DNA of 64,000 bases. It comes from Spelaeicoccus albus. Lineage in GTDB: Bacteria > Actinomycetota > Actinomycetes > Actinomycetales > Brevibacteriaceae. Location of the stretch: the NCBI RefSeq assembly GCF_013409065.1, contig NZ_JACBZP010000001.1, forward strand, positions 1,860,001-1,924,000, given 5' to 3'. The notes under the pieces were generated by a model, which made no database searches, was not told where the DNA came from, and saw only the letters and a program-made list of their open reading frames with translations. Position 1 is the first letter of the stretch. Every line of letters begins with the position of its first letter. The translations under genes and the position numbers were made by a program. Shown in pieces: positions 14,579 through 55,849 of the stretch.

Positions 14579-14717
14579 CGATCCTCCTGGTATCGACGAT
14601 GCAAGACCCTAGGCAACCTTACTCGGTAGTAACCTTCGTCCGGTGCAGCGCGAACGGTACCGGCCGGCGGCAGGGCCCCGGATGCACGCCGGAGCGAAGC
14701 ATGTAAAACTATGAAGG

Positions 14718-14746
14718 CGGCGTCCGGCGTGAACGTCCGGACGCCG
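14718..14746 (+). other. Hairpin immediately upstream of tRNA-Ser
   Basis: CGGCGTCCGG (14718-14727) pairs with CCGGACGCCG (14737-14746) around a 9-nt loop. It ends one base before the mature 5' end of the tRNA. It may be part of the tRNA precursor leader or a terminator-like structure; there is no T-run. Confidence 0.4.
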
Positions 14747-14747
14747 G

Positions 14748-14837
14748 GGAGAGCTGACCGAGCGGCCGAAGGTGGCGGTCTTGAAAACCGCTGTGCAGGT
14801 GATCCCTGCACCGAGGGTTCGAATCCCTCGCTCTCCG
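14748..14837 (+). tRNA. tRNA-Ser (anticodon TGA)
   Basis: A class II tRNA with acceptor stem GGAGAGC/GCTCTCC and a long variable arm (GTGCAGG...CCTGCAC). The T arm has GGTTCGAATCC. The anticodon loop is CTTGAAA, giving UGA, which reads UCA serine codons. G is the discriminator base. The 3' CCA is not encoded (CCG follows). An IS110-type element begins about 70 bp downstream. Confidence 0.95.
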
Positions 14838-14845
14838 CCGCAGGC

Positions 14846-14895
14846 GCCGCACCGCACCCCGTACCGTGCCTCATGCCGCACCGCGCCCCGTACCG
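14846..14895. repeat. Two direct repeats between tRNA-Ser and the IS element
   Basis: A 21-bp unit starting GCCGCACCGC and ending CCCCGTACCG occurs at 14846-14866 and 14875-14895 with one A/G difference. No gene is present here. It may be a slippage product or part of an IS insertion footprint. Confidence 0.6.
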
Positions 14896-14917
14896 CACCG
14901 ACACTTCTATGGTTGTG

Positions 14918-15961
14918 TCAAGCGGTGATGTGTTCGAGGTTTCGGTAGATTTCTCGGGCTATGTAGCGTTTGAGGCTTCGGTGGATGTCGCGGTTGCTGG
15001 CGTCGTGGGTGGTGCGTTTGTCGCGGTATGCCTGGGTGGCGGGGTCGTGGGCGAGTCGGGTCATGGCGATGCGGTGGAGTGCTGAGTTGAGTTGCCGGTC
15101 GCCGTAGCGTGATAGCCGGTGTCGGGTGGTGTTGCCGGAGGATGCTGGTAATGGGGCGGTGCCGGCGAGTTTGGCGAATGCGGCTTCGGTGCGGATGCGG
15201 CCGTGGTGGGAGTAGGCGTTGAGGATTTTCGCGCCGTTGATGGGGCCGACGCCGTTGATGTCGAGGAGGGCTGGCGTGGTGTCGGTGATGATGGTGGCCA
15301 GGCGTTCTCGGTTGGCGGCGAGTTCGGCGGTGAGGTGGTGGATTTCTTTGGCTATGCGGCGGGCTTCGTCGCGGCAGGTGGTGGTGTCGAGGTCGTCGGT
15401 GGTTCGGGTTCGCCAGGCGGCGATGGTGGTGATTTGAGCGTTGGTGATGCCGGTGCGGGCGTCGATGCCGAGGTTGGTGTCGCGGCATAGCGCGGTGAGT
15501 GAGTTTTTCAGCCGGGTGCGGTGGGCGTCGAGGCGTAGGCGGGCGGCGAGGAGCACTGCCAGGGCGTGGCGGGCGCCTGGCGCGCGGGGTGTGATGAGCT
15601 GGTCGGTGTCGGTGCCCAGAATCCCGCGGGCAGCGGTGCGGGCGTCGATGTTGTCGGTCTTACCGGTACCGACTCGGCTGGTTTTGGCTGGTGGGCGCAC
15701 TTCGGTCACTTGCAGGCCGGCGTCGGCCAGCAGGAGGGCCAGTTGGCGCCCGTAGGAGCCGGTTCCCTCGCAGGCGATCAACACGGTGCCGGTGACTTGG
15801 CTGATCCAGGTCAGGGCTCGGGCTAGTCCGGCCGGGTGGGTCGGGAACGTTTTCGTTTTCTCAATGCCGCCGGTGCGGGCGTTGACGAGGGCATAGGTGT
15901 GCGTGCGGGCGTGGGTGTCCACGCCGATGACATGATCGTAGGTGTCTGCGACGATAGTCAT
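14918..15961 (-). CDS. IS110-family transposase (DEDD recombinase)
   Basis: This 347-aa protein has an N-terminal RuvC-like DEDD domain: VIGVDTHARTHTYALVN with the first Asp, IACEGTGSYGRQLA with the Glu, and VGTGKTDNIDARTAAR with the following Asp residues. The C-terminal Transposase_20 domain contains INGVGPINGAKILN (a helix-hairpin-helix-like stretch), FAKLAGTAPLPASSGNTTRHRLS with the conserved Ser, and HRIAMTRL. The ATG at 15961 was chosen for its GAAGGAG Shine-Dalgarno and because it opens directly into the domain. The gene appears intact and may be functional. Confidence 0.93.
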   Translation of the reverse strand: MTIVADTYDHVIGVDTHARTHTYALVNARTGGIEKTKTFPTHPAGLARALTWISQVTGTVLIACEGTGSYGRQLALLLADAGLQVTEVRPPAKTSRVGTGKTDNIDARTAARGILGTDTDQLITPRAPGARHALAVLLAARLRLDAHRTRLKNSLTALCRDTNLGIDARTGITNAQITTIAAWRTRTTDDLDTTTCRDEARRIAKEIHHLTAELAANRERLATIITDTTPALLDINGVGPINGAKILNAYSHHGRIRTEAAFAKLAGTAPLPASSGNTTRHRLSRYGDRQLNSALHRIAMTRLAHDPATQAYRDKRTTHDASNRDIHRSLKRYIAREIYRNLEHITA

Positions 15962-16230
15962 GATGGTTACGTCTCCTTCACGGTTCGTGACTGTCACGGT
16001 GCCGGTCTGGAAATAGTGTGTGGAGGCATCTCCTTTAAGGGCCACACCCCCACATACGGGGTGGGCATACTTCTATCAAGCCTTCGACACGGTCAGGCCG
16101 GCACCGGCCTCTTATCGTGGTCAAGTCGACGCAAAGACACCTCAACAGAGGGGCCGAGTGGTGGAGAGACACGCCACAAGAGACCAGTTACCAGCCTGCC
16201 AGCTAACAACCAGGCCAGCCACACACCAGT
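15962..16230 (-). ncRNA. Candidate bridge RNA region in the IS110 non-coding end
   Basis: IS110 elements are known to express a structured bridge (seek) RNA from a non-coding end, and that RNA base-pairs with target and donor DNA. In this copy the ~270 bp upstream of the transposase has no plausible gene and contains small hairpins: CACCCC/GGGGTG at 16045-16063 and AGGCCG/CGGCCT at 16095-16110. This placement is inferred from the family layout. I could not fold it or match its guide loops to the flanks. Confidence 0.35.
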
Positions 16231-16234
16231 AAAG

Positions 16235-16289
16235 GAGTGGTGGCGAATGGCTGCGAAATCGGCGATTTCGCAGCCATTCGCCACCACTC
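16235..16289. repeat. Perfect 26-bp-arm palindrome, family copy A
   Basis: Arms 16235-16260 and 16264-16289 are fully complementary around a 3-nt centre (GGC). The arm begins GAGTGGTGGCGAATGGCTGC and ends GAAATC. It lies between the IS110 element and the codA stop at 16302, so on the minus strand it can act as the codA transcript terminator, though no T-run follows. Copy B is at 55756-55812 and a short relative is at 39378-39414. Confidence 0.9.
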
Positions 16290-16301
16290 GGCGGGGCGGA
16301 A

Positions 16302-17858
16302 CTACTGGGAGGCGGCCTCCTTGATCAGATCCGAGCACCGCTCGCCGATCATCATGGTCGTGATGTTCGGGTTCACCGTCGTGAGCTCCGGCATCACAGA
16401 GGCGTCGGCGACTCGCAGGCCCGTCACGCCCTTCACCCGCAGCTGCGGATCGAGCGGCGACCCTGCGTCGTCCGCCGCGCCCATCCGCACCGTGCCGGCC
16501 GGATGGTACACGGTGTTGTGGGTCTTGGCGATGTAGTCGGCGATCTCCTCATCGGTCTGTACGCCCGGCCCCGGATACAGCTCCCGCCCGGCCCACTCGG
16601 CCATGGCCGGCTGGGACACGATCTCGCGGGCTTTCTTGATCCCTGCGACCATGACGCGCATGTCGTGCGGATCCGAGAAGTAGTTCGGGTCGACCTTCGG
16701 CTTGTCCCGAAAGTCGATAGTGCGTAGCCGCACTGTGCCGCGGGAGCGGGCGTGCGTGACGTTCGGGGTCAGGCAGAAGCCGTTCTCCGTTGTCGGATAC
16801 CCCTGCCGGGCGGTGTGCATGTCGAACGGCACCGATCCGTAGTGGAACATGAGGTCGGGCCGAGACAGCCCGTCCTCGGTCGGAGTGAAGATGCCGATCT
16901 CCCACCACTGCGTCGATTCGGACACCATCGGCTGCTTGGCGTCCCACTGGATGACGCCCTCCGGATGGTCCTGCAGATTCGATCCGACGCCGGGGGAGTC
17001 GACGCGCACATCGATGCCGACCTCGCGCAGGTGGTCGGCCGGGCCGATACCCGACAGCATCAGCAGTTTCGGCGAATCGATAGCGCCGGCGCTGAGGATG
17101 ACTTCGCGCCTGGCCCCGATCGTGCGGCTGTGGATCAGGTCGGTATCGAGGACTTCGACGCCACGCGCGCGGCCGTCGTCGTCGATGACGATCTTCTTGG
17201 CCCGCAGCCCGGTGAGGACGTGCAGATTCTGCCGGTCAAGATTCGGGTGCAGATAGCTGACCGACGACGACGACCGGACGCCGTCCTCCCGGACATTGAT
17301 CTGAAAGAAGTTCGCACCGTTGACGACCGTCTCGTTGTCGTTGAACTGCACGCGCGGGATGCCTGTCTGCTCGCAGGCGTCCAGTAGCGCGACGCCGCAC
17401 GGGTCGACCGGCGGCACGTTGCGGATTCTGACGGGGCCGCTTCGGCCGTGGTGGTCGCCGGACTCGGAATTGTTTTCCAGACGGCGGTACAGCGGATACG
17501 TGTTCTCGGCGCGCCAGCCCTCGGCGCCGCGTGCCTCCCACTCGTCCAAGTCCTCGCGCGGGGCCCAGAACGCAATGCACGAGTTATGCGAGGAGCAGCC
17601 GCCCAACACCCGGGCGCGGGCATGACGCATGAACGAGTTTCCGTTCTTCTGCGGCTCGACCTGGTAATCCCAGTCGTACCCGGATTCGAGCAGCTCCATC
17701 CACCGCGACACCTGCAAAATCGCGGCGTCGTCGACGTCGGACGGTCCGGCCTCGATCAGCGCGACCTGAACGTCCGCGTCCTCACTCAGTCGGGACGCAA
17801 CGGCGGCCCCGCCTGAGCCGCCGCCAATGACGACGTAATCGAATTCGTTCTCGCTCAC
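16302..17858 (-). CDS. codA: Choline oxidase (GMC oxidoreductase)
   Basis: The 518-aa protein is a GMC flavoenzyme with N-terminal FAD motif DYVVIGGGSGGAAVASRL. It resembles Arthrobacter globiformis choline oxidase throughout, not the membrane-linked BetA dehydrogenase. It keeps GGCSSHNSCIAFWAPREDL (the His that is covalently linked to FAD in choline oxidase), QWWEIGIFTPTEDGL, HYGSVPFDM, HNTVYHPAGTVRMG (Val/Tyr/His of the active site) and TVNPNITTMMIGERC. It should oxidise choline to betaine aldehyde and on to glycine betaine with O2, giving H2O2. Its ATG overlaps the gbsA stop by 4 bp, making it the last gene of betT-gbsA-codA. A choline dehydrogenase label is the usual automatic alternative. 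Confidence 0.88.
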   Translation of the reverse strand: MSENEFDYVVIGGGSGGAAVASRLSEDADVQVALIEAGPSDVDDAAILQVSRWMELLESGYDWDYQVEPQKNGNSFMRHARARVLGGCSSHNSCIAFWAPREDLDEWEARGAEGWRAENTYPLYRRLENNSESGDHHGRSGPVRIRNVPPVDPCGVALLDACEQTGIPRVQFNDNETVVNGANFFQINVREDGVRSSSSVSYLHPNLDRQNLHVLTGLRAKKIVIDDDGRARGVEVLDTDLIHSRTIGARREVILSAGAIDSPKLLMLSGIGPADHLREVGIDVRVDSPGVGSNLQDHPEGVIQWDAKQPMVSESTQWWEIGIFTPTEDGLSRPDLMFHYGSVPFDMHTARQGYPTTENGFCLTPNVTHARSRGTVRLRTIDFRDKPKVDPNYFSDPHDMRVMVAGIKKAREIVSQPAMAEWAGRELYPGPGVQTDEEIADYIAKTHNTVYHPAGTVRMGAADDAGSPLDPQLRVKGVTGLRVADASVMPELTTVNPNITTMMIGERCSDLIKEAASQ

Positions 17859-55755: not shown

Positions 55756-55849
55756 CCAGTGGTGGCGAATGGCTGTGAAATCGCCGATTTCACAGCCATT
55801 CGCCACCACTGGGCAAGGCGGGACAGCCGTTCGCCACCACTGGGCAGGG
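55756..55849. repeat. Perfect 27-bp-arm palindrome, family copy B, with an extra half copy
   Basis: Arms 55756-55782 and 55786-55812 are fully complementary around GCC. The sequence matches copy A at 16235-16289 except for paired substitutions: C to T on one arm with G to A on the other, and a swapped outer pair. A second copy of the right arm (55823-55849) repeats 55792-55818 with two differences. The element lies 37 bp downstream of the MFS stop (55887) on that gene's strand. Confidence 0.9.

What the first reader, a model, noticed from the sequence alone, without database searches (positions are those of the whole stretch)
14905..16289. IS110 element abutting a palindromic repeat: possible REP-type targeting with bridge RNA
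The IS ends at about the base where palindrome copy A begins. Known: IS621 (IS110 family) of E. coli inserts into REP palindromes, and IS110 elements use a bridge RNA to choose targets. The ~270-bp non-coding end upstream of this transposase is where such an RNA would lie. Inference: this palindrome family is the natural target.
Basis: partly seen in the sequence, partly recalled or inferred. Interest (0 to 1): 0.55.

Follow-up and report, generated by a model that had tools for sequence, protein, structure and literature searches.

The report
RNA-guided IS110 element in a palindrome
A jumping gene of the IS110 family sits at the edge of a palindrome that is repeated across its host's genome, and it appears to encode an RNA whose guide sequence spells that edge, while its relatives in a sister genus carry different guides that match their own hosts' palindrome.

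Summary
The IS110 element (window 14902-16234, transposase on the minus strand) abuts a 55-bp perfect palindrome at 16235-16289. The genome holds four copies, identical over 1,330 bases, and 4 of 4 abut this palindrome family at the same base, with otherwise different flanks. The long end upstream of the transposase is predicted to encode an RNA of IS621-like layout. Its left target guide contains CCACCACTC, as the left target does; its right guide pairs (5 of 5, wobble allowed) with all four occupied right targets but with only 24 of 105 sampled empty-site flanks. Homologues in a sister genus insert into a different palindrome, at edge, centre or arm, with guides to match: 32 of 38 copies lie in palindromes, and no other of 3,628,800 guide-target assignments scores as high as the true one. 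Five orthologous empty sites of one homologue carry the palindrome. This is a bridge-RNA-type IS110 with a REP-like target: a new member of a known kind, in a natural series of guides matched to lineage-specific palindromes. Transcription and recombination were not tested. An IS481-like element occupies the same palindrome.

The parts
14902..16234 (-). IS110-family element, 1333 bp between the cores (RE at the low end, LE at the high end)
   Evidence: four-copy comparison; copies identical over 1330 bases
14918..15961 (-). IS110 transposase/recombinase, 347 aa from the ATG at 15961
   Evidence: Pfam PF01548 2.4e-19 and PF02371 2.4e-18 (on the longer frame 14918-16045); NCBIfam NF033542 'IS110 family RNA-guided transposase' 4.1e-46, above cut-off; ISCro4 7.8e-10 and IS621 2.3e-9 among solved structures
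14900..14901 (.). core dinucleotide at RE (TC on the transposase strand)
   Evidence: junction comparison
16235..16236 (.). core dinucleotide at LE, also the edge of the palindrome
   Evidence: junction comparison
16235..16289 (.). palindromic repeat, REP-like host sequence, target of the element
16020..16220 (-). predicted bridge RNA (ends approximate, not mapped): 5' stem-loop, target-binding loop, donor-binding loop
16201..16220 (-). 5' stem-loop of the predicted bridge RNA
   Evidence: helix 1 (columns 17-36 of A1), converted to window coordinates by hand
16156..16164 (-). left target guide CCACCACTC
   Evidence: longest exact match of the 20-nt consensus target to the LE is 12 nt, 3 of 5000 shuffles reach it; covariation
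16126..16132 (-). right target guide GCGTC plus GA (GA complements the TC core)
16069..16076 (-). left donor guide ATAGAAGT, matches RE CATAGAAGTG
   Evidence: position; covariation; alone not significant (270 of 3000 shuffles)
16031..16038 (-). right donor guide TTAAAGGA, complements core plus LE TC-CTTTA
   Evidence: position; covarying columns 1-5 with 230-234
55757..55811 (.). second palindrome copy in the window, unoccupied; its edge reads CCACCACTG, which does not complete the guide match

Best explanation
An RNA-guided IS110 element that uses a high-copy, REP-like palindromic repeat of its host as landing site. Inferred steps: the LE is transcribed into a bridge RNA; [quoted passage not shown] its donor-binding loop pairs with the joined ends of the circular element (CATAGAAGTG-TC-CTTTA); the DEDD/serine recombinase cuts and exchanges strands at the core. 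Because the site is asymmetric, the element lands with LE next to the palindrome (seen in 4 of 4 copies). Shown here by computation: ends, target, RNA structure, guide-target and guide-donor covariation, and pre-existing empty sites in relatives for one homologue. Inferred only: transcription, binding, recombination.
For: 4 of 4 copies at the same base of the palindrome. The right guide fits all 4 occupied right flanks (5 of 5 pairs, wobble allowed) against 24 of 105 left-target-matching sites in 38 fetched empty palindrome loci (0.229^4 = 0.0027). Across 10 guide classes the true guide-target assignment scores 119 and no other of 3,628,800 reaches it; left guides alone and right guides alone are each tied by one other assignment. 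RNA structure: 95.5% of cells paired, 22 of 47 pairs with two-sided changes; 0 of 500 shuffles as high on four of five measures, 2 of 500 on the fifth; the guides lie in the internal loops. Donor guides and 'handshake' positions covary with the element ends over 5 donor types (1 of 120 assignments, the true one). 32 of 38 copies of the element and its homologues lie in palindromes, and the own-type palindrome only with the own element. Five orthologous loci in relatives of G003 align across the joined flanks with the palindrome and no IS.
Against: No transcription or activity data; Rfam gave no bridge-RNA match. Five of 10 guide classes have left-guide fits of only 4 to 6 of 10 (ownB L013 4, G009 4, G048 6, G005 6, G054b 6), and the second ownB copy (L014) has a right flank that does not fit its right guide. 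The length of 5 for the right guide was chosen after seeing the occupied sites: at 3 or 4 positions the empty sites fit nearly as often (95 and 80 of 105), at 6 the contrast is 4 of 4 against 23 of 105, at 7 it is 3 of 4 against 21 of 105, and without wobble only 1 of 4 occupied sites fits at length 5. The own donor match alone is not significant (270 of 3000 shuffles). Guides were assigned by hand from the alignments, and classes share ancestry. 6 of 38 copies are not in either palindrome.
Confidence: 0.92

Rival explanations
1. The recombinase itself recognises the palindrome (hairpin, cruciform or arm sequence) and the RNA only assists.
For: 32 of 38 copies are in palindromes, as if the fold mattered; recognition of palindromic REPs by transposase domains was suggested in PMC1525189 (Discussion part 1 read).
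Against: Homologues hit edge, centre or arm of one palindrome according to their guide, and a non-palindromic target matches its guide too (G017: left 9 of 10, right 5 of 5). No other guide-target assignment scores as high as the true one.
Confidence: 0.04
2. The palindrome is part of the element (an IS end or a small mobile element carried along).
For: All four copies match through the palindrome at 100% (rounded).
Against: L012 carries a different arm pair; the half-site occurs 69 times per strand in a genome with four IS copies; empty orthologous sites of a homologue have the palindrome.
Confidence: 0.01
3. The four copies arose by segmental duplication of one insertion, so the adjacency is one event.
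For: Copies are identical over 1330 bases.
Against: Flanks on both sides differ at all four sites beyond the repeat unit, as far as printed (about 80 bases left, 45 to 50 bases right of the palindrome).
Confidence: 0.01
4. The guide match is a fossil: the LE captured a piece of the repeat and it has no function.
For: The match to the repeat unit is 12 nt, longer than the guide plus core.
Against: It lies in the internal loop, at the homologous columns where other guide classes match their own targets, to varying degree.
Confidence: 0.02

Closest known systems
IS621 (IS110 group, E. coli) with its bridge RNA
   Same: DEDD plus serine recombinase, RNA-bearing long LE upstream of the gene, RNA with a 5' stem-loop and two internal loops, left guide matching the bottom strand and right guide the top strand, REP-type palindromic target (PMC11208160 sections 6, 7, 12 and passages; PMC11208158 passages)
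   Different: different palindrome and guides; core TC here, and in homologues a target NC against TC at RE, whereas IS621 has CT with an almost invariant second T; protein related only at 2.3e-9
ISPpu9, ISPpu10, ISPa11 and other REP-inserting IS110s
   Same: IS110 elements selective for REP sequences (PMC1525189 abstract and Discussion part 1)
   Different: REPs of other bacteria; no guide RNA mentioned in the parts of that 2006 paper that I read
ISEc11/ISXne4 natural redirection by seekRNA (IS1111 family)
   Same: related elements differ in guide and, to match, in target (PMC11187229 passages)
   Different: one pair in the passages seen, and a group with the RNA in RE (PMC11208160 section 12); here 10 guide classes in one family of hosts, several on one palindrome at different positions

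Membership tests
[quoted passage not shown]
   2.4e-19; the acidic residues align with those of IS621/ISCro4 in the alignments
IS110 family | C-terminal PF02371 with conserved serine | tested here: met
   2.4e-18; an SG motif aligns; that this is the catalytic Ser (S241 in IS621, PMC11208158 passages) is inferred from the alignment
IS110 group (not IS1111) | long non-coding end with the RNA upstream of the gene (LE), short RE | tested here: met
   273 bases from the IS end to the ATG at 15961, 16 bases of RE beyond the stop; RNA structure lies in LE
IS110 group (not IS1111) | no long subterminal inverted repeats | tested here: inconclusive
   between the outer 60 bases of the two ends the longest inverted match is 7 nt, at unequal offsets 22 and 8; chance level not computed
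bridge RNA systems | structured RNA with target- and donor-binding internal loops | tested here: met
   structure; guides. In silico only; no Rfam match
bridge RNA systems | RNA is transcribed and bound by the recombinase | not testable with these tools
   no RNA data
bridge RNA systems | guide decides the target | tested here: inconclusive
   covariation over 10 guide classes supports it strongly; not shown by experiment
REP elements sensu stricto | RAYT transposase in the same genome (association recalled; cf. title and abstract start of PMC2817692 in the listing) | tested here: not met
   PF01797: 0 matches in this genome; control positive in 5 of 14 genomes. The repeat is therefore called REP-like only
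REP-like repeats | high-copy dispersed palindrome | tested here: met
   69 half-site matches per strand, control 0; intergenic placement not tested genome-wide

The most novel reading that the evidence does not exclude
Within one bacterial family, IS110 bridge RNAs have been re-aimed more than once to the private high-copy palindrome of each host lineage, hitting it at its edge, centre or arm. Palindrome targeting then arose separately in this lineage and in the sister genus (the tree puts non-palindromic targeters between them). These elements also tolerate a target core (AC, GC) that differs from the RE core (TC), each kept at its own junction, with the right target guide always carrying GA, the complement of the RE core, as expected from handshake pairing after strand exchange.
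Probability: 0.5. Interest if true: 0.6.

Novelty: new member of a known kind. Interest (0 to 1): 0.45.

Why it matters
REP targeting by IS110 and natural guide change were known separately. Here ten guide classes, two host-lineage palindromes, empty orthologous sites and a second, unrelated transposon on the same repeat come together in one host family. That makes a natural experiment on how RNA-guided mobile elements acquire new targets and why high-copy palindromes are recurrent landing pads, and it offers recombinases with an NC-type core for comparison with IS621.

Tried and rejected
The Rfam search of 14600-16500 gave a tRNA above its gathering score and four matches below gathering scores (two families on the palindrome, one on the tRNA stretch); no IS110 bridge-RNA family matched. 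The single genome-contig scan with the transposase gave one locus (Nocardioides, 46 residues), not used. Plasmid searches gave weak IS110 relatives only, none followed. RAYT origin of the palindrome: no PF01797 in this genome. L019 (713053) looked like an IS remnant, because the match ran 13 bases into the IS end; on reading those bases match poorly, and it was left open; its 105-site counts are included. A first tree took wrong reading frames for at least two rows and was discarded. The partial G028 homologue (L140) was fetched but left out of all counts; G019 (L134) has the same printed LE and junctions as G017 and is counted among the 38 copies but not as a guide class. G048's right guide and G017's left guide were not picked up by the regular expression and were read from the alignment. 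The G005 left guide follows my reading of the alignment register and differs by one position from what one search printed. No call names the genus of the window's genome or of the sister genus; Brevibacteriaceae was only my guess, used as a search word and not as evidence.

Full report
Observation. The window lies in a 4.03-Mb single-contig genome (G000:C1:1860001-1924000). On the minus strand, 14918-15961 encodes an IS110 transposase with PF01548 and PF02371 (on the longer frame from the GTG at 16045). It scores above the cut-off of NCBIfam's 'IS110 family RNA-guided transposase' and aligns to the solved ISCro4 (7.8e-10) and IS621 (2.3e-9) recombinases. Immediately beyond its upstream end lies a 55-bp perfect palindrome, 16235-16289. 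The genome has four copies of the IS, identical over 1,330 bases. Aligning them fixes the ends: core GA (TC on the transposase strand) at 14900-14901 and 16235-16236, element of 1,333 bp at 14902-16234. In 4 of 4 copies LE ends on the same base of the palindrome, with otherwise different flanks. In one copy (L012) the palindrome has a different, still self-complementary inner arm, so it belongs to the target and not to the IS.

The repeat. The half-site GTGGCGAATGGCTGCGAAAT (up to 3 mismatches) occurs 69 times per strand, against 0 for the reversed control. The arm edge TTCGCCACCACTC occurs 178 times (89 per strand, control 0), partly as single half-units at 31-base spacing beside the palindromes. 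A 26-nt half of the palindrome (up to 3 mismatches) was found in this genome only, among 60 of its family. No RAYT (PF01797) was found in the genome, so I call the repeat REP-like.

The RNA. Seventeen LE sequences were aligned: the own element and 16 homologous rows, two of them copies from one genome (G018); A1. RNAalifold gives a 5' stem-loop and two stems with internal loops, the layout described for IS621 (PMC11208160, sections 6, 7 and 12 read). On the named structure without the donor-guide pairs, 95.5% of cells pair and 22 of 47 pairs have two-sided changes; no shuffle of 500 is as high on four of five measures (2 of 500 on the fifth), and slid versions fall to 27-48% paired. The structure was derived from the same alignment, which favours it over the slid versions. 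The own RNA alone (16015-16230) folds at z -4.2. Rfam gave no bridge-RNA match.

Guides and target. In the first internal loop the own element reads TCCACCACTC on the 5' side; its left target is GCCACCACTC in all four copies (9 of 10). The longest exact match of the 20-nt consensus target to the LE is 12 nt; 3 of 5000 shuffles reach it. The 3' side reads GCGTC-GA. It pairs, with one or two wobbles except in L012, with the right flanks GGTGC, GGCGC, GGCGC and GACGC of the four copies. Among 105 sites with the same left target in 38 empty palindrome loci (those I fetched, not all in the genome), 24 fit fully. The length of five was chosen after seeing the occupied sites: with 3, 4, 6 and 7 positions the empty sites fit 95, 80, 23 and 21 of 105 times, the occupied ones 4, 4, 4 and 3 of 4; without wobble 1 of 4 occupied and 1 of 105 empty sites fit at five. 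46 sites GCCACCACTCGRYGC exist in the genome, control 0.

Homologues. A search of 60 genomes of the family (E up to 1e-60) found homologues at 44-51% identity in 12 other genomes. I examined 38 copies of 17 elements, own included; one partial homologue (L140) was left out. 32 of 38 lie in a palindrome: 4 in the own one and 28 in a different one, CTACCTGACGGCGGCCCAGCAACCTCGCG and its complement (three of the 28, L128, L131 and G041a, show only part of it beside the junction and score 23-27, above shuffles of 13-15). The 36-nt centre of that second palindrome (up to 3 mismatches) is present in 22 of 60 genomes and absent from the window's genome. The insertion point is the outer edge, the centre, or (G009) the arm. 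Six copies are in neither palindrome (ownB twice, G017, G019, G048, G005). In G041 an edge-type and a centre-type element share one palindrome (L138). Taking one representative for each of 10 guide classes, the sum of left- and right-guide matches is 119; of all 3,628,800 assignments of guides to targets only one, the true one, reaches it; for left or right guides alone one other assignment ties, because two classes share that half of the target. The classes are related and guides were read by hand, so this is a strong pattern and not an exact probability. Poor left fits: ownB L013 and G009 4 of 10, G048, G005 and G054b 6 of 10. ownB's other copy, L014, fits on the left (TTGACAAAAC against ATGACAAAAC) but not on the right.

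Donor side. The base after AGAAG in the left donor guide follows the base after AGAAG in RE in 5 of 5 donor types, and the right donor guide complements the first five LE bases in all of them. The two bases after GA in the right target guide pair with RE positions 7 (5 of 5) and 6 (3 of 5). Together only the true assignment of 120 reaches the total; handshake alone 2 of 120, left donor base alone 2 of 120. These are the handshake positions described for IS621 (PMC11208158, passages). In the homologues the two bases before LE are AC or GC (CC in G048) while RE ends in TC, so that only the C is shared by both junctions; reading this as a two-base core with a variable first base is my interpretation. 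The GA of the right guide is invariant in the 17 rows. In IS621 the core is CT, other first bases are tolerated and the second T is almost invariant (same passages). The own element has TC on both sides. Its donor match alone is weak (270 of 3000 shuffles).

Empty sites. One G003 copy with its flanks (L119) was searched in 39 genomes, relatives of G003. Of 13 loci compared with the joined flanks, five (L147, L150, L151, L152, L153) align on both sides with the palindrome present and no IS; one (L149) aligns on the right side only; seven score weakly and were not inspected. For several of these the flank matches stop on both sides of the palindrome, so they may lack it. The palindrome is thus present without the IS at the orthologous site of five relatives. 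No empty orthologous site could be sought for the window copy, because the held set has no other genome of its genus.

Tree. With 16 transposases the own element groups with G017 (non-palindromic target) and is separated from the sister-genus palindrome group by ownB, G048 and G005 (non-palindromic). That suggests palindrome targeting arose at least twice, but the root is a midpoint, branches are long, and the non-palindromic lineages rest on one or two copies each.

Place among the known. IS110 elements inserting into REPs are known (IS621, ISPpu9, ISPpu10, ISPa11: PMC1525189, abstract and Discussion part 1), as are bridge/seek RNAs and a natural redirection (PMC11187229, passages). Searches for this setting: 'Brevibacterium, IS110, palindrom' gave one paper, unrelated by title and start of abstract; 'IS110, repetitive extragenic palindromic, Actinobacteria' gave none; some searches were read as listings, except for the four papers named here. 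The library holds open papers only. Verdict: a well-supported new member of a known kind, whose value lies in the comparative series. After checking, the confidence in the best explanation was lowered from 0.93 to 0.92 because of the dependence on guide length found.

Noticed in passing
L015 1240-2670, L016, L141, L142 (G000:C1 667239, 3465733, 732226, 971025): An IS481-like element (best NCBIfam match NF033577, below its cut-off) has four long copies in this genome: three inside palindrome centres and one just outside a palindrome within the repeat array, each with a 15-bp repeat at both ends as read. Two unrelated transposons use the same repeat at different positions.
   Followed up: partly
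window 55757-55811: Second palindrome copy in the window, with one base change in each arm that keeps the arms complementary, and a half-unit at 55827-55842; its edge has CACTG instead of CACTC.
   Followed up: partly
L012, L017-L054, L141, L142: Inner arms of the palindromes differ between copies yet mostly stay self-complementary (GGCTGCGAAATC, GGTGGCAAAATC, GGCTGAAAATTTTC), which points to maintenance or copying as a hairpin; half-units are arrayed at 31-bp spacing beside many of them.
   Followed up: no
L013, L014 (G000:C1 2744454, 2726042): A second IS110 element of this genome (48% identity) inserted after TTGACAGAC or TTGACAAAAC; neither palindrome.
   Followed up: partly
L138 (G041:C3): An edge-type and a centre-type IS110 element sit in one palindrome, their RE ends facing each other.
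   Followed up: no
L019 (G000:C1:713053): Palindrome whose edge reads CCACCACTCC followed by bases loosely like the IS LE; remnant or chance, not resolved.
   Followed up: no
window 14748-14837: A tRNA gene ends 62 bases before the RE core of the IS (Rfam tRNA).
   Followed up: no
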